Below are positions 28,984-46,316 of a stretch of DNA of 64,000 nt, in pieces (positions within the stretch are counted from its first letter, which is position 1; each line of letters begins with the position of its first letter). The notes beneath the pieces are model-generated. The model was not told the origin of the DNA, made no database searches, and worked only from the letters and a program-made list of their open reading frames with translations. The stretch is from Marine Group I thaumarchaeote SCGC AAA799-D11 (GTDB lineage Archaea; Thermoproteota; Nitrososphaeria; Nitrososphaerales; Nitrosopumilaceae). A program made the translations under genes and the position numbers. Where the stretch lies: positions 1 to 64,000 of the forward strand of contig JOSY01000077.1 in assembly GCA_000746765.1 (NCBI GenBank), read 5' to 3'.

Positions 28984-29023
28984 TCCTTTAGTATTTGCCT
29001 ATTGAGTCTAAAATAATCTATAT

Positions 29024-29055
29024 AATGTATATACCATATACAAAATATATACATT
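29024..29055. promoter_or_regulatory. Nested palindromes upstream of the integrase
   Basis: Arms AATGTATATA (29024-29033) and TATATACATT (29046-29055) are perfectly complementary. Inside is a 6-3-6 palindrome GTATAT-ACC-ATATAC at 29027-29041. The site lies 30-60 nt before the integrase ATG, overlapping the likely TATA region, so it reads as an operator. A similar GTATA-based site lies at 45073-45093. Confidence 0.5.
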
Positions 29056-29085
29056 TAAATAATTGATCTTTTTACTTTACTCCAT

Positions 29086-30201
29086 ATGCAAGTACTTCAA
29101 TCAAAACAAGAAATTGAGCAAGAATTCTATGATTCTCTTTACACCGTATCTCATAGCTTCAAAACTGTTCAGACCTACAAAACCGCCATTAACAAACTAC
29201 GAAAATTCCTATCTGATAATTACCAATTTGATGAATTTGAACTAAAATCAAAGATTGATCAAGGTGAGATTGATATCTGTCAGTTTTTGAGAAAATTTGT
29301 TCTTACAATGGACAAGGATGGAGTCAAGGCAAAGGCTGTAAGAACATATCTTAGTGGAATCAAAGGTTACCTTAGACATTTGGGGATAAAGATTGATTCA
29401 GATGATTTCAAACAACTAGTTAGACTTCCCAAAGTAATCAAAACAAGAGAGATTCCATTAGATAAAGAAACTATAGGTAGAGTTCTCCGACATGTTTCCC
29501 CCAAACTACAAACTGCTATACTAATTGCAGCCTCTAGTGGATTAAGAGTAGGTGAAATCTGTAGATTACGAATCTCTGATGTAGATTTTACCTCAACTCC
29601 AACCAAAATTCATGTCAGAGCAGATGCTACTAAAACACGACAGGCTCGAGAGACTTTTATCTCATCTGAGGCTACTCATTCACTCAAAGATTATCTTAGA
29701 AGTAATTTTGACTGGACTGAATCAAATTCAGGACAAATCTTAGAACAATTCATCTTTGGAAAAACTACCACTAAAGGAAAAAAACCAACAAAATCTGGTC
29801 ATAATCCTGAAGCTGCAAAACTGACTCTTCAATCATCTTTACTCTATTACATGAAAAAGAACCCTGAACTACTAACAAAAAACGAAAATGGATACCATTC
29901 AATTCACTTTCATGGATTTAGGAAGTTTTTCAGAACTAATGTTGGAAATGTTTGTGGTAGAGATTATGCTGAGGCCTTAATGGGTCATGGATTCTACATG
30001 GATACATACTATCAACTTCCAGATGATAAGAAAACCCAAATGTATCTTGATGCAGAACAACACCTAACAATTTCAGATGCTCAATCAATTGAAGGTAATC
30101 TTAGAGATTTAAGTTCAAAATATCAAACTCTCGAGGCTAAGATGAATGGAATAATGTCTTATTTGGAAAGAAACTCAATACCTATCCCCAATATTCATTG
30201 A
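29086..30201 (+). CDS. Tyrosine recombinase/integrase
   Basis: Site-specific recombinase of the phage-integrase (XerC/D-like) superfamily. The N-terminal SAM-like DNA-binding domain covers about residues 15-115. The catalytic domain has the first Arg in SSGLRVGEICRL (about 150-160), a beta-hairpin Lys in ADATKTRQ, HxxR in HFHGFRKFF (about 276-284), a Gly-His in LMGHGF (about 304), and the nucleophile region YMDTYYQLP (about 310). All catalytic residues appear present. Length 371. It sits at the left edge of the accessory region and is probably responsible for its integration. No tRNA gene adjoins it. Confidence 0.9.
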   Translation: MQVLQSKQEIEQEFYDSLYTVSHSFKTVQTYKTAINKLRKFLSDNYQFDEFELKSKIDQGEIDICQFLRKFVLTMDKDGVKAKAVRTYLSGIKGYLRHLGIKIDSDDFKQLVRLPKVIKTREIPLDKETIGRVLRHVSPKLQTAILIAASSGLRVGEICRLRISDVDFTSTPTKIHVRADATKTRQARETFISSEATHSLKDYLRSNFDWTESNSGQILEQFIFGKTTTKGKKPTKSGHNPEAAKLTLQSSLLYYMKKNPELLTKNENGYHSIHFHGFRKFFRTNVGNVCGRDYAEALMGHGFYMDTYYQLPDDKKTQMYLDAEQHLTISDAQSIEGNLRDLSSKYQTLEAKMNGIMSYLERNSIPIPNIH

Positions 30202-30325
30202 GATAATATCCATTCCAGGAAAATGTTTCTAAAACATATGCACACCCTCTACACATTTGATACTCAACCCAATTTTTACATCTAGATGTATTTTTGTGAG
30301 TTGAATCACACATTCTACACCTCAT
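30182..30325 (-). CDS. Small zinc-ribbon-like protein
   Basis: A 47-residue protein, MRCRMCDSTHKN..., with CxxC at residues 3-6, a further Cys near 15, and MCRGC (CxxC) near 25-28, a plausible zinc knuckle. I chose ATG 30325 because GAGGAG lies six bases upstream and the gene then overlaps the preceding one by 11 nt. A longer frame to 30406 exists. It converges on the integrase with a 20-nt overlap. Function unknown. Confidence 0.55.
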   Translation of the reverse strand: MRCRMCDSTHKNTSRCKNWVEYQMCRGCAYVLETFSWNGYYLNEYWG

Positions 30326-30557
30326 GATCTTCTCCTCTATCATCATGATGTCTATGTCTGAAACGATGCATGTGTCTACGTGGATCAGATTGCTTTCGAA
30401 GATCATCTAATGCAGTTTGTGCCTCCATAATCTTTTTTTCAAAAAGACGGGTTTGTGATTGATGATATGATAAATCAACTTCCATATGGGATATTACTCG
30501 CTCAAGATCTAAAATCTCCATAGTCTCATCCATTGGAACTGAATTGGTTCTTTCCAT
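30315..30557 (-). CDS. Small coiled-coil protein, unknown function
   Basis: An 80-residue protein starting MERTNSVPMDET. It is helical with heptad-like spacing (LDLERVISHMEVDLSYHQSQTRLFEKKIMEAQTALDDL) and ends in a histidine/arginine/aspartate-rich tail (RRHMHRFRHRHHDDRGEDHEV) that could bind metal or nucleic acid. The ATG overlaps the upstream stop by one base (TAATG), showing that the shorter start is right. Middle gene of a three-gene unit. Confidence 0.6.
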   Translation of the reverse strand: MERTNSVPMDETMEILDLERVISHMEVDLSYHQSQTRLFEKKIMEAQTALDDLRKQSDPRRHMHRFRHRHHDDRGEDHEV

Positions 30558-30997
30558 TATTGAACTCCTCCAAATTGTTCTAACCACTCAGGAGTTGGTC
30601 TTTCTGCAAAAACCCTTCCCGAACACTTCAAAATTGCAGCAGTCTGCATTTTTACTCCAAAAAGAAGTAAAATCTTTTGAATTGTAGAAGGCGAAAACTT
30701 CATCTCCTGATGTAGGTATGCTATTGCCTGGGACTTTACAGGACTTTTGAGATGTCTCTTCTTACAATGAACAATTGTCTTAATTGCTTGTAAGATATTT
30801 CCATAATCTTGCTTTTCCATTCCATTGTAGAACTTTGAAGAGTTCCACATAACCTTGGAATAATGCTCATCTATTGTAGCATTCTTGAAGACAATATTTT
30901 CTTCCAAATCTGAGAAGACAAAATTGTCGTATGATACAGGAATTTCTCCTGTGACGTTATGGCCGTCACCCATTTGGTATGAAATATGTTGTTTCAT
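30557..30997 (-). CDS. Island protein with MKQxIS-QMGDGH N terminus
   Basis: A 145-residue protein, first of a three-gene minus-strand unit divergent from the CARF regulator. I chose ATG 30997 because the preceding in-frame sequence contains the promoter palindromes. The first 13 residues (MKQHISYQMGDGH) and the underlying DNA are nearly the same as the start of the 50-residue protein at 42275. The C-terminal half (SPVKSQAIAYLHQEMKFSPSTIQKILLLFGVKMQTAAILKCSG) could be a helix-turn-helix. No known family recognised. Confidence 0.6.
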   Translation of the reverse strand: MKQHISYQMGDGHNVTGEIPVSYDNFVFSDLEENIVFKNATIDEHYSKVMWNSSKFYNGMEKQDYGNILQAIKTIVHCKKRHLKSPVKSQAIAYLHQEMKFSPSTIQKILLLFGVKMQTAAILKCSGRVFAERPTPEWLEQFGGVQ

Positions 30998-31033
30998 ACC
31001 TACTATACCAGGCACTGTCCTGTAGTGTTTATA

Positions 31034-31059
31034 TTGTATAATACAAAAATTATTTGTAT
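31034..31059. promoter_or_regulatory. Overlapping palindromes between divergent promoters
   Basis: TTGTAT-A-ATACAA (31034-31046) overlaps ATACAAA-AATTA-TTTGTAT (31041-31059). Both are perfect dyads. The second ends 3 nt before the CARF gene ATG at 31063 and the pair lies about 40-60 nt upstream of the divergent gene at 30997. This is an excellent position for an autoregulatory operator. Confidence 0.6.
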
Positions 31060-31062
31060 TAA

Positions 31063-31962
31063 ATGATACAAATAGCCACGTTAGGAGACGTCCAGGTAGT
31101 AGTTGAGGAGGGATTGAGGAAAAATCCACCTGAAAAATTATACATTTTACATACTGAAAATGAAAGAACTAAAACAAAATTTGATGAAGATTTGGAAAAA
31201 GCCAAAGGTAAAGACAAAGACAGAATAAAAACACAACAATACAAAGACAATGCCGAAAAATTAAAGAAAAAAATTGTAAATGACTTTGATATTCCAGTCC
31301 ATTTAGTTCAAGTTGATAAATATGGAACATATGATGTAATTCGAGAAATTCAAAACATTATCAGTAAAGAAAAGAAATATGATACAAAACTAAATGGAAA
31401 AGATTTTGCAATAAACATTACAGGTGGAACAAAAGCCATGGTTGCAGGTGCAGCATGCTCAGCTTATCTTGCTCAAACCAAAATGTACTATGTTTTACAA
31501 TATAATGAAGCAAAAGGAAAAGAAGAATTAGTTAAAGAATTACCTGTTCCACCAAGAGTAAAAAGCAAAAACACCATTTCTGGATCTACTGAAAGCACAA
31601 CATCAAGAATTCTTCAAAGAATTTGGGAATCTGAACTTCCTATTGGGCGTGCAAAATTACTTGAGAGTTTTTCTGAAGGAATGCCTACAGAAGTTATGAA
31701 AGCAGAAAAGAAAAAAGACAAAAAAACTGGAAAGTACAAGAAAACTGGAAAATATAACAAAAAAACTGAATTCAAAACTATTACATCATCTTTATTGAAT
31801 TTCCATTTAGACAAATTAGAAGATGCTGGACTAATTATTAGAACAACTGGTAAAGAGACTCTATCTACAGGTAAAGTTGACAGAAAAAGCAAGTTTATCG
31901 ATTTAACAGAATTTGGTCAACTTCATGCTGCCTACCCTGAGACTATTGGGGATTTAATTTAG
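31063..31962 (+). CDS. CARF-domain winged-helix regulator (stand-alone, Csa3-like)
   Basis: The N-terminal half (about residues 1-155) is a Rossmann-like CARF domain. It starts IQIATLGDVQVVVEEGL and carries the ligand-loop motif DFAINITGGTKAMVAGAACSAYL near 113-135, the signature of cyclic-oligoadenylate sensors such as Csa3 and Csm6. The C-terminal half is a winged helix (TTSRILQRIWESELPIGRAKLLESF ... LLNFHLDKLEDAGLIIRTTGK). Between helix and wing is a lysine-rich insert with an internal repeat (KKTGKYKKTGKYNKKT, about 222-237). No CRISPR array or cas effector is in the window. It probably controls the adjacent Cas4-like/helicase operon. Confidence 0.78.
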   Translation: MIQIATLGDVQVVVEEGLRKNPPEKLYILHTENERTKTKFDEDLEKAKGKDKDRIKTQQYKDNAEKLKKKIVNDFDIPVHLVQVDKYGTYDVIREIQNIISKEKKYDTKLNGKDFAINITGGTKAMVAGAACSAYLAQTKMYYVLQYNEAKGKEELVKELPVPPRVKSKNTISGSTESTTSRILQRIWESELPIGRAKLLESFSEGMPTEVMKAEKKKDKKTGKYKKTGKYNKKTEFKTITSSLLNFHLDKLEDAGLIIRTTGKETLSTGKVDRKSKFIDLTEFGQLHAAYPETIGDLI

Positions 31963-31980
31963 TTCAAATTATTTTTGGAT
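31962..31980. promoter_or_regulatory. Degenerate 7-5-7 palindrome before Cas4-like operon
   Basis: GTTCAAA-TTATT-TTTGGAT has the same half-site spacing as the perfect copy at 31041. A further ATACAAA half-site follows at 31982-31988 (TATACAAATC). It lies 45-60 nt upstream of the ATG at 32025. Confidence 0.4.
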
Positions 31981-32024
31981 TATACAAATCAGTTTTGATA
32001 TAACCGAACCAACATCTATTACAT

Positions 32025-32756
32025 ATGGAAAAAACAAAAAACAATCAATTCATGCAGGTAGAAATTCCTGATGGAATAACCTCATTTCTTGAGAAGAAAT
32101 CAGGAATTTTTAGAAATGAGAAAACTCCATCATATGGAGTAACTGAGATTGTAAGGTGTCTTAGAAAGTCATTTTATGAAAGAACAAAGAAAAAAAGAAA
32201 ATCAAAAAAATCACTGGATAATTTGTGGCCAACAGTTAGAGGTGATTTGTTACATCAAATGACTACCGCATACAATTGGAATGAACTTGATATGGATTTC
32301 CAAATCCCATTAGGAAATGACAATTCTGGAACAATTTCAGGTAGATTAGACATGTATGATTGGAAAACAAAGACAATCATTGATCTAAAGACTACAAAAG
32401 ATGTCTATACACAAGCAGAAGAGGGAACTATTCCCAAAAAAGAGGATATTTTACAAATTCAGTGCTATGGAACTATTTTTTCAAATATTATCCCCATTCA
32501 GGAACTAGTTCTAGTTTATGCAGATTTGAATGATATGTTGGCATTTCGTATTGCAAATGAGGACAAAACCTGGTGGTTAAAAGAAAGAATTCTAGAATTA
32601 GAACAGGGAATTAGTGATAAAAAACCACCAAAAAGGGAAATTTCAAAACTATGTTATTTTTGTAGATTTTTCAATGAATGCAATCCGAATGAAAGTAATA
32701 TTATCATACCTGAAAAATCAGGATCCGAATTAAATACTCAAAAAGGTGTAAAATAA
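32025..32756 (+). CDS. Cas4-like PD-(D/E)XK Fe-S nuclease, paralogue 1
   Basis: RecB-family nuclease with Cas4 architecture. The N-terminal cysteine lies in TEIVRCLRKSFYE (about residue 45), and the conserved His in RGDLLHQM (about 83). The catalytic Asp is in SGRLDMYD (about 109), DLKTTK (about 120-125) follows, then QxxxY as LQIQCYG (about 148). The C-terminal cysteine trio CYFCRFFNEC is near 212-221. Four cysteines should hold an Fe-S cluster. It is 2 nt from the giant helicase gene. It shares the GRLDMYDWKTKTIIDLKTTK core exactly with the second paralogue at 42424. Probably a DNA end-trimming nuclease; not CRISPR adaptation, because cas1 and cas2 are absent. Confidence 0.88.
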   Translation: MEKTKNNQFMQVEIPDGITSFLEKKSGIFRNEKTPSYGVTEIVRCLRKSFYERTKKKRKSKKSLDNLWPTVRGDLLHQMTTAYNWNELDMDFQIPLGNDNSGTISGRLDMYDWKTKTIIDLKTTKDVYTQAEEGTIPKKEDILQIQCYGTIFSNIIPIQELVLVYADLNDMLAFRIANEDKTWWLKERILELEQGISDKKPPKREISKLCYFCRFFNECNPNESNIIIPEKSGSELNTQKGVK

Positions 32757-32758
32757 AA

Positions 32759-35700
32759 ATGGCAACTAAAACATTCAATCCCCTATTAGCAACAAAAGAC
32801 ATTCAAGAAAGTTATGTCAATTTTTACAAAACTAATTTTACTTTGGGAAATGATACATTATCTAATCAACTATCCAAATTATCTGAAAACAATAGACTTT
32901 GGAGAGAACCATTTATTTCAATTAGCCAAAATTACATTCCAGGCAAAACACTAGAACAATTAAGTTCAGAAGTGCAATTGGACAATGAACTTCTTACTTC
33001 TTTGCCTATACAAAATTTATTCCAACACCAAGAAAATGCAATAAAAAATATTGTAAAACTTGAAAGAGATACAATTGTTTCATCAGGAACTGGTTCAGGA
33101 AAAACTGAATCATTTCTTATTCCAGTCTTAAATGAATGTGCGAAATCTGAAGTAACTGGAATCAAAGCAATTCTAATTTATCCTATGAATGCATTAGCAA
33201 ATGATCAGGTTGATAGATTACGTGATATTTTATTTACACTCAATAAAAAACGAGTAAATGTAGGAAAACGAGAAATAACATTTGGAATATACACTGGACC
33301 AACTGCACGAACCATATTTCAAAAATCTGGAGAATTACACAAAGATTTAATCTACTTATCATATAGATGTCCTTCTTGTAATCGAAATGATGCACTAAAA
33401 TGTGATCAAGAAAATGGAAAAGTAATTTTAACTTGTAGACATGAACAAGATGTCAAAATTAAATTTCAAATATTTACAAGAGAAGAATTACAAAACAATC
33501 CTCCTGATATTTTAATCACAAATTACTCTATGCTTCAAAGAATTATGGTAAATCAAAAAGATAAACCACTTTTTGAAAAAAATAAAATTAAATTTTTGGT
33601 TCTTGATGAAATTCATGCATATGGTGGAGCAAAAGGTGTAGATGTTGCATTATTGTTAAGACGTTTCAAAAGAAGATTATTGAAAAACTCGTTTGAAAAA
33701 CAAAACATAATTTGTGTAGGAACAAGTGCAACAATGTCAAAATCCTCTGATACTCAGATACGAAAAGCAAAGATAGGCGAATTTGGTTCTCGTTTATTTG
33801 GAGCCAAATTTACAAATGATGATGTTTTTGAAGGTGAAAAAAAGCCTTGGGAATTACCTACAACTAAACAAGTAGAAAAATTTGAAATTTTAGATATTCC
33901 AAAATCACTTGAAGAAGTTGAAAAAGAGAAATTTGAAGCCGTTTGTAAGCAAATATCACCTGAAAATGTGCCTGATTTAGAGACATTAAAGGAAAAATCA
34001 GAATTTCTTGGAAAAATTTTGTTGAGCAACCCATTCTTTCAAGAAATAATAAAAAATTTATCAGAACCTAAATCTCTTAGCGAATTAAAATCATCTATTT
34101 TAGATAATGAATTACTAAAAGAAAAATTACAATCATCATTTAATGATAAAACATTAGATGAGTTAATTTGGTCATATCTTAAAGCTGGAAGTTTAGCAAT
34201 AACTTCTACTCAAAAAAATGATGAGCCATTACTAAAAGTAGGAATTCATAATTTCTTTAGAATACTTCCTAAAGTTTTCATGTGTACAAATCCTGATTGT
34301 AGAGAAATGTATTTCACACCTAAAGAAGATTGTGAAAAATGTCAAAAGAAAATTGAAGAACTAGCTATTTGTAGAAACTGTTCTGCAGAATTTCATGTTT
34401 CACAAGTATCTTCTGAAGAAATTCAGAATGAAGGAACACAAAAATTTGAAAAACAAAGATTAGCAAAGAAACTACTTGCTGCCAAGAAAAAACAAAATCC
34501 AAACTCAAAAAAAATAGAAGAACTTGAACAAAAAACCAAAGAATATGAAAACAAACCAATAAAAAGATATTCTTCAAACGATGTAAATGAAAATCCTGAA
34601 GAATTATGGTATAAACATGTAGATGCAATACCAACTCAATCCTCTGAAGAAGAACATCCAAGAGTTTTTTATAAAAAATGCATGGATTGTGGTTCTTTTA
34701 ATTTAATAGATAAACAAGAATGTGAAATGGAAAAAGAAGATGGAAATATTTGTAATTCTAAAAAATTAATTTTAATTGAAACTTTTATCCCAAAATCTAA
34801 CTCAACAAGAAAAACTTGGCGTCCTACTGATTGTCCAGAATGTGGATTTGCATATGGTGGCGCAGGTTATGCAGTGACAAAATTTGAAATGGCTCCAAAA
34901 CAAGCTAGTACAAATCTTTTCAATATTGCTTTTGAAAAAGTTGATAATCACAAATTACTAGTTTTTACAGATAGTAGACAAGATGCAGCAGAACTTGCAC
35001 GTTGGTTAGATTTCGCACATGAAGATACTGCTATTAAACAACTAATCATGCAACAATTGAAAAAATTATCTGATGATGGTCGTACAGATATCGGTTTTAG
35101 AGAATTAGTTAATGATGAATTAATGCCAATAATTGTTAATGAGTGGTATAATTTCAATTTAAAAGATTTTGATCGTACTCCTGAAGAATTAGAGAAAAAA
35201 ATACTTCTTGCAGTCACAGATAAGAAACGTTTAGCCATCGAAAGATTGGGTCTAATCGAATGTAACTATCGAGGCTTGCAAAAACTTGAGGAATTTGAAC
35301 AAAGTTGGAAATCAGCTTTAAACAATTGGAAATTTGAAAGACCACCAAAGTCTGAAATTTTAGATATTTTGAATCTAAAGACCATTTCAGCAGAAATCAT
35401 GAGTGATTATGTTACCACTGTACTGAATATGATGCGTAGACGTGAAGCAGTTTCAGGATTAGAAAAAAGGGATTGGAATGAAAAATTTGAAGCAGAAGGT
35501 TTTGATTGGGATATTCAAAATGCAAAAATTCCATCTCCAAAGGGAACAGTAATTTTTAATCTAGCAAAAAAATCTCGTAATCCATTTCTAAAATATACAT
35601 TAAAGGTATTTGAACTCGGTGAAGAAACACCAGAATCAAAAAACGATGCTTCTAATATTTTAGAGGCTGTTTGGAATTTTATCAAAACAAGAGGTTTTGT

Positions 35701-38700
35701 TATTAGAGTTAATTTAGAAAAATTTAGACAACCACAACCAACACTTGCATATGTTGTATCTACAAGTAATCTTAGATTATCACTCCCAAATGAAATTCAA
35801 TCTTGTGAAGAATGTTTAGAAGTAAATACAAATCTACCTAAAAATAATTGTCAAACAAGCATTCGTTCAAAATTATGTGAAGGGAAAACAAAGACCATTC
35901 CTTATGCAGAATTTTTATCATCAAAAATAAACGATCATTTTTTCATGATTTTTAAAGATGAAAAACCTACTCGAATGGCTACAAAAGAACACACGGGAGC
36001 ATTATCTGAAGAAGAGAAAAAAACTACACAAGATTCATTTTCATCTGAAAATCCCAATGAACGTAAAGTAGATGTCATTATCGCTACTCCAACTTTAGAA
36101 TTAGGCGTAGATATTGGAGATCTTACTTCTGTGGGCTTATACAAATCGCCTCCATCGGCTAGTAGTTACACTCAGAGAGTTGGAAGAGCAGGTAGACGAG
36201 ATGGAATTTCATTTGTTAATACATTCTTTTTCAACAGTCCTATTGATGAATTTTATTACAGAAATCCTCAAGAATTGATTAAAGGCGATTTTTACCCACC
36301 TTACATAAATTTCGAAAATGAAGAATTAATTAAAAGAAATTTCAATTCTATTATTTTAGAAGAAGTTGCGTTATCTGAGCTTGGAAAATTGCTTAACACA
36401 CCTGTTGATGAATTTTTGAAAAATAAAAATGAAAACATAAAAATGATTTTAAAATTTATTGATGATAAAAAAGAATCATTTGCAGAATCATTTAGATTTG
36501 TCTTTGATGATATTCCTGAATACAAAGAGAAATTTAATCTGAGTGAAAAAATTTCTAAATTTACTGAAGAGTTCAAAGAAAATTTTGATAATGCTTTAGA
36601 CATTTATGTAGATGAAGTAAATTCTGCTCAACAATCAATTAATGAATATCAGGCAATTCAAGGAAGACTAGTAGCTGAAGATTACTGGAAATTAAAAGAA
36701 TTAGAACGTAGACAGATAGAATTAAAGACTAAAACGTTGGTTACTCATCTCTTTGATGTAAACTTTTTACCTAGATTTGCATTTTATGGAAAATTAGTTC
36801 AAATTGAAACTACTAAAGGTTCCATGTATCAAGGTGGACGTCCACGAAATATTGCTTTATCAGAATTTGCACCAAACTGTGAAATCACTTGGAAAAAGAA
36901 ATCTTACAAATCTATTGGAATAGATCCTGATAAAGCACCCGAATTTTTCAACATATGTAATAATTGTAAGAAGTTTTTTAGCTCAGAACCAATTGCCGAA
37001 ACAGAATGCCCTTATTGTAAAGAAATAATCCAACCAGGTGTTTCACCAATTCGTTCTATTTCTCCAAATAGAATATTCATAAAAGAAAAAACTAAGACCA
37101 TTACTGAGTCTGCTAACTATAATGAGCCAAAATTAGATATTTTCATGCCTAAACCTAAATTTGATCCAATCTCTAAAACAATTCCTTTAGATTCATTTGA
37201 AATAGAATTAACAAAATTTGGTAATACTAACATGCTTTTGATGGTCAATGAAGTATTTACTGACTTTGATGATCCTGATGATAATACAGAAAGAGAAAGT
37301 TCAGAAGTAAAATTATGTGATAAATGTGGTAAAGTAAAGGAGCATGCACTTGAAAATGTCCATAGACCAATAAACAAAAAATTCACATCCAAATGTCCTG
37401 GTAATTTTGTAAATGCTGCATTACATCATAAAATGCCAACAAACGTAATCTCAATAAAAATTAAAAAAGATAACGAAACAATACAGGAAAAAAAATTCCT
37501 TACTACTTTAAAAAATGCCATTATCAATTCAGGTCAAACTATAGCTGAGGCAATGGAAGGAGAACTTGAGGGAGTGATCAAAGAAGACGAATTATTGTTA
37601 TTTGATAATGTTGATGGTGGTGCAGGTTATGTTGACATTATCTTTGAACGATTTAATGAAGTACTAAAAAGAGCATATGATATTATCAGTAAAGAAGAAG
37701 AACATTACAAAGAAGTATGTGACAAAGGATGTTTGCATTGTTTATGGTCATACAGACGTAAACGAGATATTCCTTTTATTGATAAACATCTGGTCTATCC
37801 ATTATTACAAGAAAGCACAAATTTACCAATTGAAACTTCTGAAGAAATTAAAAAAAAACAACAAATTTTTGAATTTGAAAAATTAATTTCAGATCCAAAA
37901 TCTTTGGATGGTGCAACATTCATCAAAAAATCATTTCAAAATGCAAAAAAAGAAATCAAAATTTTTACATCTATAATTGATGATAAAAAAATTGACTGGG
38001 AAGATGATAGAGCAAAAAGTTGGATTGAAGTCCTAGGTTCTCTTAGAATGGGTACAGACAACATAGCAATCTCGATTTTCTTAAAGAATCGTTCATTTCA
38101 AGATGAAAACAATTTGAAACGGTTGCTATCTTTTGGTATAGATATTTTTGAAATTAATGATGAATATTTTGAAGAATCTACCTTGAATTCTAATGATTCT
38201 CTAGTTTTGATTGACCAATTTACTGAACAGAGAAACTGTATGATAGTCTCTAATAGCCTTACTGAACAAATTACCAAAAATCATACTGTTATCCAACATA
38301 GTGTTAAAGAAGAATCAATTGAAGAAGTCAAAAAGAATTTAGAAAATATTTCCCTGCTTTCCAAAAAAATTAACAATAATGATCTAACATCACTTGATAA
38401 CATTACAAAATCATATGTCAAAGGAAATGATAATGAATCACTTTCAAAAGCTATTTCTGAATTTAATAATTTTATTTCTACAACACAAAAAACAATAAAA
38501 CTGATAGATCCTTATTTACATGGTCATCCAAGTCGTGGAATAGAAAATAATTTACGATTTTACATTAGTTATTTAACAAAATTTCTAAAAAAAGGAATTA
38601 CTATACAAATCATTACAACTGATCAGGAAAAAAGTACTTTATCAAATTTGAAAATTTATTTCAAAGATTTAGGTTATGATATAGACATTATTTCTTATGA

Positions 38701-38977
38701 TTTACATGGTCTCCATCAAAATACTAGAGTTATTCATGGTAGATATTTCATAATTGATGATACAAAATTTGTCGAATTAGAAAAAGGACTATCAATGATT
38801 TTTGAACATGAAGCAAAAGGATTTTTGAATAATGGGATAAAAAATGTGTATAATTCAAACATAACTGATACGCAAGAAACTTTGAAAGAATTTTTTGATC
38901 CTTTATGGAATTATCAAAATTCTTCAAATGAAAAAATTCGTAATGGATCAAAAATTGATACGAGGATGTTGAAATGA
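32759..38977 (+). CDS. Giant helicase-DUF1998-PLD fusion (DISARM-like)
   Basis: A 2072-residue protein. The SF2 helicase has GTGSGKTE (about residue 110), YPMNALANDQ, LDEIHAYGG (DEIH, about 281-289), VGTSATM, VFTDSRQDAAE (about 734), ATPTLELGVDIG (about 1108) and YTQRVGRAGRRDG (about 1138). Zinc-type cysteine pairs occur near 204-226, 508-545, 641-690 and 1399-1421. A DUF1998/MZB-like segment (NVDGGAGYVDIIFE near 1617; CDKGCLHCLWSYRRKRD near 1654) follows. The C-terminal 350 residues look like a phospholipase-D-type domain (IKLIDPYLHGH near 1912; HGRYFIIDD near 1993, HxR instead of HxK). In DISARM these functions are the separate DrmA, DrmB and DrmC. Probable nucleic-acid translocase and nuclease. 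Confidence 0.85.
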   Translation: MATKTFNPLLATKDIQESYVNFYKTNFTLGNDTLSNQLSKLSENNRLWREPFISISQNYIPGKTLEQLSSEVQLDNELLTSLPIQNLFQHQENAIKNIVKLERDTIVSSGTGSGKTESFLIPVLNECAKSEVTGIKAILIYPMNALANDQVDRLRDILFTLNKKRVNVGKREITFGIYTGPTARTIFQKSGELHKDLIYLSYRCPSCNRNDALKCDQENGKVILTCRHEQDVKIKFQIFTREELQNNPPDILITNYSMLQRIMVNQKDKPLFEKNKIKFLVLDEIHAYGGAKGVDVALLLRRFKRRLLKNSFEKQNIICVGTSATMSKSSDTQIRKAKIGEFGSRLFGAKFTNDDVFEGEKKPWELPTTKQVEKFEILDIPKSLEEVEKEKFEAVCKQISPENVPDLETLKEKSEFLGKILLSNPFFQEIIKNLSEPKSLSELKSSILDNELLKEKLQSSFNDKTLDELIWSYLKAGSLAITSTQKNDEPLLKVGIHNFFRILPKVFMCTNPDCREMYFTPKEDCEKCQKKIEELAICRNCSAEFHVSQVSSEEIQNEGTQKFEKQRLAKKLLAAKKKQNPNSKKIEELEQKTKEYENKPIKRYSSNDVNENPEELWYKHVDAIPTQSSEEEHPRVFYKKCMDCGSFNLIDKQECEMEKEDGNICNSKKLILIETFIPKSNSTRKTWRPTDCPECGFAYGGAGYAVTKFEMAPKQASTNLFNIAFEKVDNHKLLVFTDSRQDAAELARWLDFAHEDTAIKQLIMQQLKKLSDDGRTDIGFRELVNDELMPIIVNEWYNFNLKDFDRTPEELEKKILLAVTDKKRLAIERLGLIECNYRGLQKLEEFEQSWKSALNNWKFERPPKSEILDILNLKTISAEIMSDYVTTVLNMMRRREAVSGLEKRDWNEKFEAEGFDWDIQNAKIPSPKGTVIFNLAKKSRNPFLKYTLKVFELGEETPESKNDASNILEAVWNFIKTRGFVIRVNLEKFRQPQPTLAYVVSTSNLRLSLPNEIQSCEECLEVNTNLPKNNCQTSIRSKLCEGKTKTIPYAEFLSSKINDHFFMIFKDEKPTRMATKEHTGALSEEEKKTTQDSFSSENPNERKVDVIIATPTLELGVDIGDLTSVGLYKSPPSASSYTQRVGRAGRRDGISFVNTFFFNSPIDEFYYRNPQELIKGDFYPPYINFENEELIKRNFNSIILEEVALSELGKLLNTPVDEFLKNKNENIKMILKFIDDKKESFAESFRFVFDDIPEYKEKFNLSEKISKFTEEFKENFDNALDIYVDEVNSAQQSINEYQAIQGRLVAEDYWKLKELERRQIELKTKTLVTHLFDVNFLPRFAFYGKLVQIETTKGSMYQGGRPRNIALSEFAPNCEITWKKKSYKSIGIDPDKAPEFFNICNNCKKFFSSEPIAETECPYCKEIIQPGVSPIRSISPNRIFIKEKTKTITESANYNEPKLDIFMPKPKFDPISKTIPLDSFEIELTKFGNTNMLLMVNEVFTDFDDPDDNTERESSEVKLCDKCGKVKEHALENVHRPINKKFTSKCPGNFVNAALHHKMPTNVISIKIKKDNETIQEKKFLTTLKNAIINSGQTIAEAMEGELEGVIKEDELLLFDNVDGGAGYVDIIFERFNEVLKRAYDIISKEEEHYKEVCDKGCLHCLWSYRRKRDIPFIDKHLVYPLLQESTNLPIETSEEIKKKQQIFEFEKLISDPKSLDGATFIKKSFQNAKKEIKIFTSIIDDKKIDWEDDRAKSWIEVLGSLRMGTDNIAISIFLKNRSFQDENNLKRLLSFGIDIFEINDEYFEESTLNSNDSLVLIDQFTEQRNCMIVSNSLTEQITKNHTVIQHSVKEESIEEVKKNLENISLLSKKINNNDLTSLDNITKSYVKGNDNESLSKAISEFNNFISTTQKTIKLIDPYLHGHPSRGIENNLRFYISYLTKFLKKGITIQIITTDQEKSTLSNLKIYFKDLGYDIDIISYDLHGLHQNTRVIHGRYFIIDDTKFVELEKGLSMIFEHEAKGFLNNGIKNVYNSNITDTQETLKEFFDPLWNYQNSSNEKIRNGSKIDTRMLK

Positions 38978-40404
38978 GTTTTAATGAAATTGCAAATTTA
39001 CTTGTAAAAGATTTAGTAAAAGAAGAAATTTCTTTTGAAAAATTAGAGAAAATCTTAGAGGATATAGACCAAGGACATTCTTTCTTTAAACATTGGATCA
39101 AAGATAGACAAAATTTTCAAAAATTAAAAGCAAATTCTGATTTTCATGGCCACATCACTGATAGTAATTGGGGGTGGTTGGAAAACCATACATTTCCTAT
39201 AACCTTGGAGATTCTAAACAAAGTTTTGACGCCTGGAGGAGAGGTTGCAATCCGTAGTTTTGGTGGAGAAAAACGAGATTTGCTTGTTTATCATGCAATA
39301 TGTCCTGAGTTAGAGAATTTTGTCTCATTGATTGTTTGGGTTGATACTAAAAGCTCAATGAATGCTTGGATGCAAATATCAGATTTAGTTGCAAAAAAAG
39401 ATGATCAAAGAGTTTTACAATTTTCTCATAAATGTGGAATATTGTTACCTAATAGAATCCACCCAAGTCATGATCAAGAATCGACATTAGTTTCAAAGGA
39501 ATTTTATAAATCTCTATATGATTGGAGATTTACACCTTATCTTTTTGATGATGCTAAAACAATTGTTTCTCATAACTCTCCCCTAAATTTTAGAAGAATT
39601 GTATTAAATGAATGGGATGAAAATACATCATTAGCAGAAATTAGAACAACAATTGGAAGATTGATTCAAATCAAAAAAAATTCTATTGAAGTATTAATTC
39701 CATCTCTTGTAGGTAAACCACTCAATAGAATTTTTCTTATTGATGAAAAATTAAAAGAAAAATTAAAAGAAAAATTACAAGAAAATTCTTTGTATTACTT
39801 CCAAATTTTTAAAGTTGCAGGTTCAGAAAATATGGAAACACATGTTAGAAATATTTCTGATGCATCATCAGTAGATATTGTTGGAATGTTTTTAGCATAT
39901 TCGACATATCTGTTACATTTAGGAAATAAAAGATTGAAAGTTTTGACTGCAGGAAAATTTGAAAAATTATTTAAATTATTTTATAATCAATCTGCAAGAT
40001 TTTGTGAACGAAATAATAGTGAATTAGATGCTATGAATCATCTTGATTGGAAAACAATCCAATTTGGATTTACTGATTCATTTACAAAATGGATCGGAAC
40101 TGATCTTTATGTTGTACCAGCACTATTGAGACGATTTTTATCAAAATTTGAATCAGAAACAGAAGATACTATAATACAAAAATTCGATGAGTCATTATCA
40201 AGTGAAAATCATGCCTGTTTTACAGATATTCCATATAATTCTCAAGATAATAGGATGTTTTCTAGGCTGGAAAAAGGCAAAATCAACAAAATGTATGATT
40301 ACATCAATTTTCTAATAAATGAAAAGAGATTCATTTTAAAAATTGGACAAAATTTTCGTCCCCATCAAAGAGATGAACATTTTTTCTGGTTACAAAAACA
40401 ATAA
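38974..40404 (+). CDS. Unrecognised 476-residue protein coupled to the helicase
   Basis: The ATG overlaps the helicase stop by 4 nt (ATGA), so the protein is probably made in step with the helicase and may be its partner. The sequence is soluble, rich in aromatic residues, with no membrane segment. There is a short lysine/glutamate repeat (KLKEKLKEKLQE, about residues 258-269) and a leucine-rich helical centre near 315-340. I find no catalytic motif and recognise no family. It is the most novel-looking component of the operon. Confidence 0.75.
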   Translation: MSFNEIANLLVKDLVKEEISFEKLEKILEDIDQGHSFFKHWIKDRQNFQKLKANSDFHGHITDSNWGWLENHTFPITLEILNKVLTPGGEVAIRSFGGEKRDLLVYHAICPELENFVSLIVWVDTKSSMNAWMQISDLVAKKDDQRVLQFSHKCGILLPNRIHPSHDQESTLVSKEFYKSLYDWRFTPYLFDDAKTIVSHNSPLNFRRIVLNEWDENTSLAEIRTTIGRLIQIKKNSIEVLIPSLVGKPLNRIFLIDEKLKEKLKEKLQENSLYYFQIFKVAGSENMETHVRNISDASSVDIVGMFLAYSTYLLHLGNKRLKVLTAGKFEKLFKLFYNQSARFCERNNSELDAMNHLDWKTIQFGFTDSFTKWIGTDLYVVPALLRRFLSKFESETEDTIIQKFDESLSSENHACFTDIPYNSQDNRMFSRLEKGKINKMYDYINFLINEKRFILKIGQNFRPHQRDEHFFWLQKQ

Positions 40405-40407
40405 CTT

Positions 40408-41802
40408 CTAATTAGATTTTACTTTCTTAAAGGTCATTACAAAATCAAAACGCAGTCCACCCTCTTTGTGTTCTTGAACTACAGATTTACGAGAATAGTC
40501 TAGTGTAGAAACATCATCAATCTTTAATCCAATATTTTTTGAAAATTCCAAGATTTCTCTCCATGTCTTTTCACTATGAGAGTTAAACATCAAAGTAAGA
40601 TAATGATTAGGTTTGAGTACTCGGGTCATCTCTTTCATAGTAGCTTCAAATAATTTCAAATAATTTGCAACATCTTTTTTTCTCTCAGTAGCGCCGCTAA
40701 CAATTATCTCATTTTTGTAATCCACCTTATTTCCAAGCCAACTATTCCACATTTGGCTTAATTCAAGATATGGGATTCTATCTCCATGAGGTGGGTCTGT
40801 AATGATATAATCAATGGAGTTCTTTGGTATTTTCTTAAGACCCTTTAGGGCAGGTGTATTTGTAAGCAAAACATCACCTTTTTTTAATTCAGAGAAATTC
40901 TTCACAAATTTTACAGGTTTGAAATTCTCTATTTGTATTGTCTTTGCTGCAAGTATTTTCTTGTACCTTCTAACAAAACTATTCCAAACATTTACCTCAA
41001 AATGCTCTTTTGGAACCCAATAACCAATCACCCAACTTCCAATTTTACGATATTTCAGCTTCACTTTCCCATTTTTTGTCATAGTATTGTTTATGACAAA
41101 AACCATCTTGCTTGTCTGACCTAGCATTGATGAAAAACATAATCTGAATAGTTCTCGAATCTCTTTATCACGAATTTTGTTGATTCTATCCAAAAGTATG
41201 GCTAGAGCAGTCGTATTTCTAGGCGTGAATAAGTCACAAACTCTGACTTTAGAGTCAGCATTGATTCTTGGATTATGAAAGAACTTGTCTTTTGGATAGA
41301 ACTTTTTAATTTTTGAATAAGTAAATGAATTTGCTAGTTTGATATCTGATCTTTCTGGTTTGAATGATTTTGCACCTCTCCATTTCTGAAGTTTTATCTC
41401 ATCAAGTTTCCCATTGACCCAAATAAAGTGACTTCCAACCTCTGTCTTGTCTTTTCTTTTAATAAGATAAAATGAATTTATTTTATCTTTACACTCTTCT
41501 TCTATTTTTTGAAATTCCTCTTCTACTTTTGATATATCTTGAGAACTCATTACAGTTTTTGCAAGTGATGTGGCAATTGGATTAATATCAAAACCAACTG
41601 CTTTTCTTCCAAGATTTTTTGATTCAATTAAGGCAATTCCTGAACCCGAAAATGGATCTAAAACAATATCATTTTTCTTTGTGTGATTCTGAATTATCTG
41701 ATTAATTACATTATAGGGCTTTTTTGCCCAATATTTGTGAATGCCATAGATAGTATCATATGTTTTAGGTTCAATGATTGAAGTTTTCTTAGAAGATTTC
41801 AT
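40408..41802 (-). CDS. DNA N-methyltransferase (N4-C/N6-A type)
   Basis: SAM-dependent DNA methylase, 464 residues. The N-terminal IHKYWAKKPYNVINQII is followed by the SAM motif DPFSGSGIALIES (about residues 50-62) and VGFDINPIA. About 290 residues later comes the catalytic motif ITDPPHGDRIPY near 344, with DPPH instead of DPPY/F/W. LKPNHYLTLMFNSH and a final strand follow. The order (SAM motif, long variable region, catalytic motif) resembles the alpha arrangement, with the insert a likely target-recognition domain. It converges on the helicase operon (3 nt gap). It could mark self DNA for the island's nucleases. Confidence 0.82.
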   Translation of the reverse strand: MKSSKKTSIIEPKTYDTIYGIHKYWAKKPYNVINQIIQNHTKKNDIVLDPFSGSGIALIESKNLGRKAVGFDINPIATSLAKTVMSSQDISKVEEEFQKIEEECKDKINSFYLIKRKDKTEVGSHFIWVNGKLDEIKLQKWRGAKSFKPERSDIKLANSFTYSKIKKFYPKDKFFHNPRINADSKVRVCDLFTPRNTTALAILLDRINKIRDKEIRELFRLCFSSMLGQTSKMVFVINNTMTKNGKVKLKYRKIGSWVIGYWVPKEHFEVNVWNSFVRRYKKILAAKTIQIENFKPVKFVKNFSELKKGDVLLTNTPALKGLKKIPKNSIDYIITDPPHGDRIPYLELSQMWNSWLGNKVDYKNEIIVSGATERKKDVANYLKLFEATMKEMTRVLKPNHYLTLMFNSHSEKTWREILEFSKNIGLKIDDVSTLDYSRKSVVQEHKEGGLRFDFVMTFKKVKSN

Positions 41803-41856
41803 TTTGAAATTAAACTAATACAAAATCATATTACTTACATATGTGTATTATGCTTA

Positions 41857-42207
41857 ATGGCATACCCTCCTGAATCTCAAGTTAGATTACCACTACTAAG
41901 ATTTGCAAAAGATGGGAAATTAAAATCGGTTTTAGATGCAGAAAAATATCTATCTAAACGATTCAAGCTTACAAATGCTGAGATCAATAGAACTAAAAAA
42001 TCTGGAAATGAACGATTATTTTTACATAGAGTTAGATGGTCTAGGACTATTCTAAAATATTCAGGATTAGTTAGTGATCCAAAAACTGGATTTTTCAAAA
42101 TCACTCCTGGAGGATTAAAAATTCTAAAAAACCCTCCCCCAGTACTTAATGACAAGTTTTTGAGTCAGTTTCCAGAATTTAAGAAGTGGCGTAGGCGTAA
42201 AAAGTAG
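41857..42207 (+). CDS. Mrr N-terminal (winged-helix) domain protein without nuclease
   Basis: A 116-residue protein matching the N-terminal DNA-binding domain of Mrr-type restriction enzymes. LPLLRFAKDGKLKSVLDAEKYLSKRFKLTNAE (about residues 11-42) leads to FLHRVRWSRTILKYSGLVSDPKTGFFKITPGGLKIL (about 60-95). The PD-(D/E)XK nuclease half of Mrr is absent, and the basic tail KKWRRRKK ends the protein. It is divergent from the methylase gene, so it may be its regulator or a DNA-recognition subunit lending specificity to a Cas4-like nuclease. Confidence 0.82.
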   Translation: MAYPPESQVRLPLLRFAKDGKLKSVLDAEKYLSKRFKLTNAEINRTKKSGNERLFLHRVRWSRTILKYSGLVSDPKTGFFKITPGGLKILKNPPPVLNDKFLSQFPEFKKWRRRKK

Positions 42208-42212
42208 ATATT

Positions 42213-42231
42213 ATTCAAATTATTTTTGTAT
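42213..42231. promoter_or_regulatory. 7-5-7 palindrome before small-gene/Cas4-like operon
   Basis: ATTCAAA-TTATT-TTTGTAT has one mismatch between arms. It shares spacing and most bases with the operator at 31041-31059. It lies about 45-60 nt before the ATG at 42275. Confidence 0.5.
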
Positions 42232-42274
42232 AATTCAATAAACTACCTACAATCGATTATCTCCCACATTATTC

Positions 42275-42427
42275 ATGAAACAACAAATTTCAAAACAAAT
42301 GGGTGACGGCCATATCGTCGAACAATTTGCTGAAAACACAAATCCACTAAATCTAGTTCAAGCATTTCTTTATGCTTCCTTTGGGGGATTTTCAGTAAAA
42401 GAAATTCTAGAGGTGCAAAACAGATGA
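42275..42427 (+). CDS. 50-residue island protein with MKQxIS-QMGDGH N terminus
   Basis: MKQQISKQMGDGH followed by a short helical tail (LVQAFLYASFGGFSVKEILEVQNR). The first 40 nt are nearly identical to the start of the gene at 30997 on the other strand. Its stop overlaps the ATG of the second Cas4-like gene by 4 nt, which supports real translation and coupling. It could be a leader, an adaptor or an anti-nuclease peptide; no family recognised. Confidence 0.6.
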   Translation: MKQQISKQMGDGHIVEQFAENTNPLNLVQAFLYASFGGFSVKEILEVQNR

Positions 42428-43173
42428 GTACAATCCCCCTAGAAAAAATAGAAAGTGTATCTGAAGAGATTGATACTCCTGAAGGAATTGTAAATTTCTT
42501 ACAAAAAAGAAATGGATTATACTCTAAAGACTATACTTCGAGATATTCAGTTACTGAACTTGTTGGGTGTCAAAGAAAATCCTTTTACAAACAACTAGGA
42601 ATTTCTCAAGAAGAATTACTTTCTGATACAACTCTTGAAGGAATGTGGGCAACAGTCCGTGGTGATTTTCTACACAATATGACATATGCTTACAAATGGC
42701 GGGAGATGGACATTGAGCATTATGTTCCATTAAAAGATGGAAGAGTTGCAACTTTAGCTGGAAGATTAGACATGTATGATTGGAAGACTAAAACAATCAT
42801 TGATCTAAAAACCACAAAATTTGTTAGATGGCAAATAAAACAAGGTTTCTTACCAAAACCTGAGCATATCTTACAACTACAATGTTACAATACAATGTTT
42901 TCAGAATACATGCCAGTTGAGAATCTCAACATAGTCTATGCAGACATGTCTGATATTGTTACCTACAAAGTGCAAAAACGTGACTTGACTGACTGGATAA
43001 AGACTAGAATTCAAGAAATTGAGAGTTCAAAAACTACCCAAAATACTCCAACTGGGGAAGTGTCTGGATTATGCAAGTATTGCAGATACCAAACTAGATG
43101 CTCAGAAGATGGAAATGGTCTTACTGAAAAGCCTCTATCCACGCCTAAATCAACGGAGAGTGAGCAGGAATAA
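42424..43173 (+). CDS. Cas4-like PD-(D/E)XK Fe-S nuclease, paralogue 2
   Basis: 249 residues with the same motif set as the gene at 32025. These are TELVGCQRKSFYK (first Cys), RGDFLHNM (His), AGRLDMYDWKT (Asp), DLKTTK, LQLQCYNTMF (QxxxY) and CKYCRYQTRC (three Cys). The two proteins are clear paralogues, differing mainly in N-terminal and linker segments. It is the second gene of a five-gene overlapping chain, with 4-nt and 1-nt overlaps on its two sides. A processing nuclease on DNA ends is likely; the partner may be one of its tiny neighbours. Confidence 0.87.
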   Translation: MSTIPLEKIESVSEEIDTPEGIVNFLQKRNGLYSKDYTSRYSVTELVGCQRKSFYKQLGISQEELLSDTTLEGMWATVRGDFLHNMTYAYKWREMDIEHYVPLKDGRVATLAGRLDMYDWKTKTIIDLKTTKFVRWQIKQGFLPKPEHILQLQCYNTMFSEYMPVENLNIVYADMSDIVTYKVQKRDLTDWIKTRIQEIESSKTTQNTPTGEVSGLCKYCRYQTRCSEDGNGLTEKPLSTPKSTESEQE

Positions 43174-43313
43174 TGATGTCTGAAAAACAGATCAAAATCC
43201 TCCTTGAAGATCTATTATCTCAATACCTGGTTGGATATTTTTCAGATGACCTAGATTATGAGGCAGAAAAGTGGGGGCAAATCCAGATTTTAGAATGGAT
43301 TCTCTCAAAATGA
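43173..43313 (+). CDS. 46-residue acidic helical protein
   Basis: MMSEKQIKILLEDLLSQYLVGYF continues into an acidic stretch (SDDLDYEAEKWGQ) and ends WILSK. Start ATG overlaps the preceding stop (TAATG), and its own stop overlaps the next ATG by 4 nt. The second ATG at 43176 could also serve. No family recognised; the overlap pattern is the main evidence for expression. Confidence 0.55.
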   Translation: MMSEKQIKILLEDLLSQYLVGYFSDDLDYEAEKWGQIQILEWILSK

Positions 43314-43510
43314 CTGTAAAATCTATTCTTGGAGTAGTGACATTTTTCATGTTTGTTTTAGGGATTTTTCTTATGATTATTGCCGAAGGTGTTGATATTG
43401 TCTTTGGTGTTGGATTACTCCTTTTCATAATTGGGATAATTATAGTAATTTTCTACATTACATGGATGATTGCAGTAGGTGCAGATGACTTTGTGAGGAG
43501 ACATTGGTAG
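43310..43510 (+). CDS. Two-helix membrane protein
   Basis: A 66-residue protein with two membrane helices (about residues 5-24 and 28-55) and a short C-terminal tail (DDFVRRHW). I chose ATG 43310 because it overlaps the previous stop as ATGA. An upstream in-frame start would lengthen it without improving it. Part of the island's small-gene chain, so a membrane effector or anchor is possible. Confidence 0.6.
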   Translation: MTVKSILGVVTFFMFVLGIFLMIIAEGVDIVFGVGLLLFIIGIIIVIFYITWMIAVGADDFVRRHW

Positions 43511-43917: not shown

Positions 43918-44412
43918 TCATTCTGTTTCTTGCATGCCATTTCTATTCATACCATCTTTATACATAACAATTTGTTCTCCACAGTGTAATTCTTTTGTAA
44001 GTTTTCCATATCCCGAAGTCATTTTTTCCAAATATCTTTCAGTTGTTACAGGTGATAGATCTATGTATTCTGCTCCTGAATACTTTAGATCTTTCCATCT
44101 TAGTTTTTTTTGTTCATCTAGGTGATCATAAACAAAATTGTAGAATTTTGCTTGTCTTTCTCTACTAATTGAAATAGCTGTTTCTTTCTCTGTTTTCACA
44201 CACAGGTCATTATGTTCATTTGACTTGTTTTTGAAATTGACACATGACCTACAAAGTAATTGTAAGTTTTCTATTGCAGTATTCTTGTTATTGTTATCTT
44301 TACGATTAAGAACTAGAGTAGCTTTGTCAGGTAATACACCACAACATTGACAATATTCTCCATATTTTGTTATTAACATTTGACGTTTTTTTCTTGTAGT
44401 ATATCCGTTCAT
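43918..44412 (-). CDS. HNH-like zinc protein with degenerate active site
   Basis: 164 residues. The N-terminal half matches the HNH endonuclease scaffold with CQCC (about residue 21-24) and LCRSC (about 53-57) holding zinc around NRKDNNNKNTAIENLQLL. The catalytic histidines expected in the DH and CH positions are replaced (NRK and CVNF), so cleavage activity is doubtful. The C-terminal half is a new domain (ERQAKFYNFVYDHLDEQKKLRWKDLK...). Third gene of a minus-strand unit, 3 nt after the preceding stop. It might be a DNA-binding or regulatory remnant of a homing or restriction nuclease. Confidence 0.65.
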   Translation of the reverse strand: MNGYTTRKKRQMLITKYGEYCQCCGVLPDKATLVLNRKDNNNKNTAIENLQLLCRSCVNFKNKSNEHNDLCVKTEKETAISISRERQAKFYNFVYDHLDEQKKLRWKDLKYSGAEYIDLSPVTTERYLEKMTSGYGKLTKELHCGEQIVMYKDGMNRNGMQETE

Positions 44413-44415
44413 AAC

Positions 44416-44741: not shown

Positions 44742-44784
44742 CTCATATGTACCGATACTACATCAATTATTTAATTGTTTACAA

Positions 44785-46244: not shown

Positions 46245-46268
46245 TAGATATACTATATTCTATATCTA
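46245..46268. promoter_or_regulatory. 8-8-8 inverted repeat upstream of cupredoxin-like gene
   Basis: TAGATATA (46245-46252) and TATATCTA (46261-46268) are exact complements around an 8-nt centre, about 50 nt before the GTG at 46317. It is either an operator or a terminator of the preceding small ORF. Confidence 0.4.
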
Positions 46269-46316
46269 AAATAATTTAGTAGCAAATTATAAACCAAATT
46301 AGAGAACAAATCTATT

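What the first reader, a model, noticed from the sequence alone, without database searches (positions are those of the whole stretch)
32759..38977. Helicase, DUF1998 and PLD fused in one 2072-residue chain
Helicase motifs (DEIH, RVGRAGR), several zinc knuckles, a DUF1998-like Cys/Gly segment and a C-terminal PLD-like HGRY motif occur in order. DISARM keeps these as DrmA, DrmB and DrmC. A single-chain form would fix stoichiometry and could be an ancestral or streamlined version. The HxR in place of HxK in the PLD part may mean altered or lost catalysis.
Basis: partly seen in the sequence, partly recalled or inferred. Interest (0 to 1): 0.75.

Follow-up and report, generated by a model that had tools for sequence, protein, structure and literature searches.

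The report
Nucleotide-sensor-led Druantia-like archaeal defence cassette
The giant helicase is a real but distant cousin of the known antiviral protein DruE, whose single-chain design is normal for its family; what is new is that it rides in a mobile element of an ammonia-oxidising archaeon in which a predicted nucleotide-sensing switch and one DNA operator appear to control an interchangeable slot for antiviral genes.

Summary
In detail: one intact 2072-codon frame (32759-38977) encodes an SF2 helicase core, zinc knuckles, a DUF1998/MZB module and a PLD-like C-terminus. The DISARM-fusion reading does not. The protein belongs to the ARMADA/Druantia branch of YprA helicases (best profile DruE), where helicase plus DUF1998 plus C-terminal nuclease in one chain is the rule and DISARM is the split exception. 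HxR is not a lost HxK: all 13 PLD-tailed DruE proteins sampled carry HxR. The sampled Druantia and ARMADA groups do not include it cleanly, so it is a divergent lineage, so far a singleton. The larger finding is the context. It lies in a 17.3-kb integrated element (29007-46278, 14-bp direct repeats, empty site intact in relatives) of an ammonia-oxidising archaeon, in an operon of Cas4-like nuclease, DruE-like helicase and a 476-aa orphan, behind a CARF-wHTH gene. Seven relatives carry the same CARF gene, five with a type I restriction system beside it. A 17-bp palindrome (TACAAA-N5-TTTGTA) lies 4 bp from the CARF start and 44-45 bp upstream of partner genes; its one exact genomic match is here, and degenerate copies precede the DruE operon. 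I read this as a CARF-controlled, cargo-swapping defence cassette.

The parts
29007..29020 (.). attL core TCTAAAATAATCTA of the integrated element
   Evidence: Left flank of relatives ends here; single-copy core in G020
46265..46278 (.). attR core TCTAAAATAATTTA (13/14 identical to attL)
   Evidence: Right flank of relatives resumes here
29086..30201 (+). Tyrosine recombinase (integrase) next to attL; homologues near several of the other CARF cassettes
   Evidence: Pfam PF00589; blastp
30557..30997 (-). 146-aa protein of unknown function, conserved in sister elements; starts with the MKQ leader; divergent from CARF gene and shares its operator at 44 bp
31042..31058 (.). Predicted CARF operator TACAAAAATTATTTGTA, the only exact match in the 1.36-Mb genome; 4 bp from CARF ATG and 44 bp from the divergent gene's ATG
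31063..31962 (+). CARF-wHTH predicted regulator (HFX_2341-like), with NITGGTKAM motif
   Evidence: Pfam PF19810 above cut-off, PADLOC CARF3 82 bits, alignment with 6 homologues; wHTH from conserved C-terminus, no significant Pfam HTH hit
31963..31979 (.). Degenerate operator TTCAAATTATTTTTGGA at the canonical 45 bp upstream of the Cas4-like/DruE operon
31983..31999 (.). Second degenerate operator TACAAATCAGTTTTGAT, 25 bp upstream of the operon
32025..32756 (+). Cas4-like RecB-family nuclease A (four Cys, GRLDMYD, DLKTTK, QxxCY all kept)
   Evidence: PADLOC Cas4 38 bits, PHROG 75 bits, alignment
32759..38977 (+). DruE-like YprA-family helicase, 2072 aa
33605..33616 (+). DEIH box (residues 283-286)
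37511..37744 (+). MZB/DUF1998 zinc module (residues 1585-1662)
38462..38821 (+). PLD-like (MIT_C) domain with DPYL (1917) and HGR (1993)
38974..40404 (+). 476-aa orphan protein, start overlaps the DruE stop by 4 bp; candidate sensor/partner
   Evidence: no family in Pfam, PADLOC, NCBIfam, PHROGs
40408..41802 (-). DNA methyltransferase (N6_N4_Mtase in two pieces); no operator; membership of the system uncertain
41857..42207 (+). Mrr N-terminal domain protein without the catalytic part
42214..42230 (.). Operator TTCAAATTATTTTTGTA (1 mismatch), 44 bp upstream of a leader ORF
42275..42427 (+). 50-codon MKQQISKQMGDG leader ORF whose stop overlaps the Cas4-like B start
42424..43173 (+). Cas4-like nuclease B (44% identical to A), a recurrent gene of these elements
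43918..44412 (-). Weak HNH-endonuclease-like protein inside the element
   Evidence: PHROG HNH 27.7 bits

Best explanation
A divergent DruE-like helicase-nuclease is the effector of an antiviral operon carried as exchangeable cargo by an integrated mobile element of ammonia-oxidising archaea. Predicted mechanism: (1) a CARF-wHTH protein binds a 17-bp palindrome at its own start codon and at 44-45 bp upstream of the cargo and accessory genes, so that binding of a nucleotide ligand made during infection switches the whole element (sites shown in silico; binding, sign and ligand inferred); (2) the Cas4-like nuclease resects DNA ends, leaving 3' single strands (inferred from Cas4 biochemistry, own knowledge); (3) the DruE-like protein loads on 3' single-stranded DNA, unwinds it under its DUF1998 canopy, and the HxR PLD domain nicks it (inferred from Druantia III DruE); (4) the 476-aa co-translated partner takes the sensor or targeting role that DruH has in Druantia III (inferred, weakest step).
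For: Protein: PADLOC DruE1 490.8 bits, collinear to residue about 1742; Druantia DruE in PDB 9tu7, E=6e-45; MZB and PLD-like domains above Pfam cut-offs; HxR and D-x-Y motifs shared with 13 DruE tails. Element: integrase, 14-bp direct repeats and intact empty site. Regulator: CARF profiles. Cargo exchange: CARF homologues in 7 other family genomes, 5 with hsdM/S/R beside them, 2 with an AAA+VWA gene pair nearby. Operator: 12 exact copies in 7 cassette loci against 0.07 expected, none in 179 kb of control loci; one exact copy in the whole genome, at the CARF start; spacing 44-45 bp for every hsdM or hsdM-containing operon and for the 145-147-aa and Cas4-like genes tested; in G002 the copies at CARF, hsdM, Cas4-like and 147-aa genes all became TACGA...TCGTA together. 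Cargo link: degenerate site at 45 bp before the DruE operon, chance about 7e-4. Coupling: 2-bp gap and 4-bp overlap within the operon.
Against: Only one genome of about 400 sampled in the phylum has the DruE-like gene and the 476-aa gene, so the operon is not shown to be conserved. The operator copies before this operon are degenerate (2 mismatches). The PLD tail matches DruE3 tails only weakly (hhalign E=0.04), and no PADLOC DruE model covers it. No cas1 and no credible Cas10 in this 87%-complete genome, so the ligand source is unknown. No wHTH profile hit was significant. Antiviral action is wholly inferred.
Confidence: 0.6

Rival explanations
1. An ordinary Druantia (type III-like) system: the gene is simply a diverged druE, the 476-aa protein a diverged DruH, and CARF, Cas4-like and integrase are chance neighbours in a defence island.
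For: DruE is the best profile; PLD tail and HxR as in type III; co-translated unknown partner.
Against: AU tests reject grouping with sampled type III (p 0.0008), cyanobacterial type III-like (p 0.005), all PLD-tailed DruE (p 0.002) and DruA-associated DruE (p 0.002); the 476-aa protein has no similarity to four DruH-like proteins; CARF, operators and Cas4-like genes recur as a unit in other genomes.
Confidence: 0.2
2. A deep ARMADA-like system, with the neighbouring methyltransferase serving as the PglX-type partner.
For: In the unrooted tree the protein attaches between ARMADA and Druantia; ARMADA homologues score DruE profiles at about 410 bits, close to this protein; a methyltransferase lies at 40408-41802.
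Against: No BrxHII-like helicase among the scanned neighbours; methyltransferase is 464 aa, on the opposite strand, without an operator; tail is PLD-like, not Vsr; grouping with ARMADA I disfavoured (p 0.029).
Confidence: 0.1
3. The element is a decayed or inactive island and the helicase is idle cargo.
For: Operators before the operon are degenerate; the Mrr protein lacks its catalytic domain.
Against: 6.2-kb frame fully open with all helicase motifs; both Cas4-like genes keep all motif residues; attL and attR cores 13/14 identical.
Confidence: 0.1

Closest known systems
Druantia type III DruE (E. coli; PDB 9tu7; PMC13192584)
   Same: Single-chain YprA helicase with DUF1998/MrfA zinc module and PLD C-terminus, about 2100 aa, HxR motif, zinc knuckles
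   Different: Full-length similarity weak (20-23% identity); partner is 476 aa, not an 1100-aa DruH; CARF regulator and Cas4-like nuclease in the locus; outside the sampled type III clade
Cyanobacterial Druantia III-like loci (Nostoc, Microchaete, Pseudanabaena plasmids; L055, L074, L075)
   Same: Among the best local matches (27-29% identity in the N-terminal helicase region), HxR tails, 2080-2120 aa
   Different: Operon is DruH-like protein plus 308-aa protein plus DruE, unrelated by BLAST to the genes here; WYL gene upstream in at least one instead of CARF
ARMADA type I (Haloquadratum, Natrinema, Thermus, Allomeiothermus)
   Same: YprA-family helicase of the same branch, similar from N-terminus to DUF1998
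   Different: [quoted passage not shown] reported Vsr rather than PLD tail
DISARM DrmA/DrmB/DrmC
   Same: Same three kinds of domain
   Different: Three separate proteins; DrmA profile 90.8 bits against 490.8 for DruE1
CARF-wHTH regulators of defence loci (PMC4012209); type I R-M-carrying integrated elements of Thaumarchaeota (PMC6563490)
   Same: CARF-wHTH proteins were predicted to control defence genes; integrated elements with hsdMSR were mapped in thaumarchaea
   Different: I found no prior description of the operator, its fixed spacing, its co-variation or the DruE cargo in the papers searched

Membership tests
YprA-family defence helicase (ARMADA/BRIGADE/TALON/Druantia branch) | SF2 helicase core and DUF1998/MZB in one chain | tested here: met
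YprA-family defence helicase (ARMADA/BRIGADE/TALON/Druantia branch) | BrxA-like domain, beta-barrel and MarR-like inserts with zinc knuckles | tested here: inconclusive
   CxxC pairs between 525 and 1016 and collinearity with DruE1; no reliable structure
Druantia type III | DruE inside the type III clade | tested here: not met
   AU p 0.0008 with sampled type III; long branch, so caution
Druantia type III | DruH partner gene | tested here: not met
   No BLAST similarity of the 476-aa or Cas4-like proteins to four DruH-like proteins; fold not tested
Druantia type III | Two C-terminal PLD domains, last one active | tested here: inconclusive
   Last domain met; first half only by low-confidence model; activity not testable
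Druantia type I | DruA-D partners | tested here: not met
   No such neighbours in scanned genes; AU p 0.002 with DruA-associated group
[quoted passage not shown]
   No second helicase in the operon; only a 464-aa methyltransferase on the opposite strand
ARMADA | C-terminal Vsr nuclease | tested here: not met
   Tail matches PLD-like MIT_C
DISARM | DrmA and DrmB as separate genes, DrmC PLD protein | tested here: not met
   One open frame; DruE scores far above DrmA
BRIGADE / TALON | 7-deazaguanine cluster (BRIGADE); NERD nuclease, TPR-CSD, TBP (TALON) | tested here: not met
   None among the neighbours scanned; helicases of these clades were not available for the tree
CARF-wHTH regulator | CARF domain with ligand motif | tested here: met
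   PF19810 above cut-off, NITGGT motif conserved
CARF-wHTH regulator | C-terminal wHTH that binds DNA | tested here: inconclusive
   Only sub-threshold HTH hits; operator evidence is indirect
Cas4-like nuclease | RecB catalytic residues and four cluster cysteines | tested here: met
   alignment of 7; Pfam Cas_Cas4 just under its cut-off

The most novel reading that the evidence does not exclude
Ammonia-oxidising archaea carry a family of integrated elements whose CARF-wHTH switch, acting through one co-varying operator and without an evident CRISPR signal source, commands an interchangeable slot for antiviral effectors (type I restriction, AAA-VWA pairs, or here a separate YprA-helicase class with a Cas4-like nuclease and a new partner protein).
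Probability: 0.45. Interest if true: 0.68.

Novelty: new variant of a known kind. Interest (0 to 1): 0.5.

Why it matters
It corrects a tempting reading (a DISARM fusion with a dead PLD) and supplies a general point: HxR is the normal PLD signature of DruE. It also gives a directly testable case of what a CARF domain senses outside CRISPR, since the regulator, a highly specific operator, fixed spacing and several different cargoes are all in hand, in archaea whose virus defences are little studied.

Tried and rejected
Relatives by peptide patterns in genome contigs (one short helicase match only) and viral contigs (none). AlphaFold on the PLD tail and on the 476-aa protein without alignments: pLDDT 42 and 33, useless for fold search, so none was run. 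PDB sequence search with the tail: nothing significant. hhalign and hmmsearch of the tail against DruE tails: only suggestive (E about 0.02-0.04). Plasmid search with the 476-aa protein and with the tail: no match. Rooting with MrfA was dropped because of long branches. Idea that the methyltransferase or Mrr gene is under the same operator: rejected, no site. Idea that CARF is fed by a resident type III CRISPR system: no cas1 found and only a 15.7-bit Cas10 match (cut-off 170) in an incomplete genome.
Full report
OBSERVATION. The frame 32759-38977 is open for 2072 codons. It holds Walker A, DEIH, SAT and QRVGRAGR motifs and ten CxxC pairs. Pfam finds DEAD, Helicase_C and MZB (the MrfA zinc-binding domain, DUF1998) at 1585-1662, all above cut-off. 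The last 175-185 residues, searched alone, match the PLD-like family MIT_C above cut-off.

WHAT THE PROTEIN IS. PADLOC gives DruE1 at 490.8 bits and DrmA at 90.8; the best PDB relative is a Druantia DruE, 9tu7 (identified as DruE from its length, name and PMC13192584). Scores to DruE models do not separate Druantia from ARMADA: a Haloquadratum ARMADA helicase scores 414 and 406 bits with DruE3 and DruE1, while E. coli DruE scores 2180 with DruE3. Trees of 24-25 homologues place the protein on a long branch between the ARMADA and Druantia groups. AU tests disfavour it inside sampled type III (p 0.0008), DruA-associated (p 0.002), cyanobacterial type III-like (p 0.005), all PLD-tailed (p 0.002) and ARMADA I (p 0.029) groups. 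These are quick trees with a long branch, and no BRIGADE or TALON helicases were available, so 'divergent lineage of the ARMADA/Druantia branch' is as far as I go.

WHAT IS ALREADY KNOWN. PMC12458937 describes exactly this architecture: helicase, OB, connector and DUF1998 are normally one chain; DISARM is the branch where they are consistently split; C-terminal nucleases are fused in ARMADA, TALON and Druantia; Druantia III has two PLD domains. PMC13192584 reports structure, 3' single-strand preference and DNA cleavage for a type III DruE. So the fusion itself is not new.

HxR. In 13 PLD-tailed DruE proteins, several of them only about 25% identical to one another in the tail, the motif is HxR every time, typically in the context (V/I)PH-x-R-x-L, with an upstream D-x-Y; this protein has VIHGRYF and DPYL. 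Overall tail similarity is weak, so common descent of the tail with Druantia III is likely but not proven, and catalytic activity is not shown here for this protein.

THE ELEMENT. The genome encodes archaeal AmoA, so the host is an ammonia-oxidising archaeon. In relatives the left flank ends at 29020 and the right flank resumes at 46265, overlapping by a 14-bp core (TCTAAAATAATCTA / TCTAAAATAATTTA) that is single-copy in the 88%-identical relative G020. Thus 29007-46278 is an integrated element of 17.3 kb, with a tyrosine integrase just inside its left end.

THE OPERON AND ITS SWITCH. The order is CARF-wHTH gene (31063), Cas4-like nuclease (32025), DruE-like (32759, 2-bp gap), 476-aa orphan (38974, 4-bp overlap). 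The Cas4-like protein keeps the four cysteines and RecB residues. CARF homologues occur in 7 other genomes of the 250 sampled in the family. Five have hsdM/S/R beside the CARF gene, verified by Pfam in G370, G002 and G462 and seen by gene size and position in G073 and G149; two have an AAA plus VWA pair nearby. A second Cas4-like gene (as at 42424) and the 146-aa gene (as at 30557) recur with them. The DruE operon therefore sits where sister elements hold restriction systems.

THE OPERATOR. All CARF genes compared have a 17-bp palindrome TACAAA-N5-TTTGTA (or variant) a few bp before the start codon. The same sequence lies 44-45 bp before the start of hsdM or the hsdM-containing operon in all five restriction cassettes and before the Cas4-like and 145-147-aa genes. 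In G002 the copies at CARF, hsdM, Cas4-like and 147-aa genes have all changed to TACGA...TCGTA, as expected if one protein reads them all. Twelve exact copies lie in seven cassette loci against 0.07 expected, none in 179 kb of control loci. In the window's genome the exact motif occurs once, at 31042. Before the DruE operon there are two copies with 2 mismatches, one at exactly 45 bp (chance about 7e-4). Genes read from the accessory sites share a leader MKQ-x-(I/V/L)-S-x-QM-(G/D), which in two elements is a separate 50-codon frame; in the window its stop overlaps the Cas4-like start.

HOW IT PROBABLY WORKS. Shown in silico: element, operon, sites, co-variation, domain content. Inferred: CARF binds the sites and responds to a nucleotide; Cas4-like resection supplies 3' single strands; the DruE-like helicase loads there and its PLD domain nicks; the 476-aa protein is the sensor or targeting partner. 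Whether CARF activates or represses cannot be told from sequence: its own site abuts its start codon, which suggests autorepression, while cargo sites abut an AT-rich TATA-like stretch.

LIMITS. The helicase and the 476-aa protein are singletons in about 400 genomes of the phylum; metagenomes could not be searched. The genome is 87% complete, so absence of cas1 and Cas10 is soft. Structure predictions failed for lack of an alignment.

Noticed in passing
L068, L100, L101, L102, L103, L105; window 30997 and 42275: Several unrelated genes in these archaeal elements begin with the same MKQ-x-(I/V/L)-S-x-QM leader, each 44-45 bp after the operator; in two elements it is a separate 50-codon frame before the Cas4-like gene. 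Origin and role of the copied leader are unexplained.
   Followed up: partly
L099:12777-15580, L101:12260-14987: Two CARF cassettes carry a MoxR-type AAA plus VWA gene pair instead of a restriction system, a candidate uncharacterised defence module.
   Followed up: partly
window 40408-41802 and 41857-42207: DNA methyltransferase with its N6_N4_Mtase match in two separated pieces (C-terminal part of the profile first), and an Mrr N-terminal domain without nuclease, between the DruE operon and the second Cas4-like gene; neither has the operator.
   Followed up: partly
window 38420-38974: The PLD tail also matches the C-terminal end of one PADLOC BrxL profile (PDLC02508, 23 bits), suggesting a PLD-like domain shared with some BREX-annotated proteins.
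   Followed up: no
L081:7992-12668 (Ruminococcus phage NatCom_28274): A phage genome carries a 1558-aa DruE-like helicase with a 916-aa partner and no C-terminal nuclease, between the endolysin and replication genes.
   Followed up: no
G009:C1:1334600-1338079: Another relative seems to have a different insertion of about 3 kb at the same chromosomal site.
   Followed up: no
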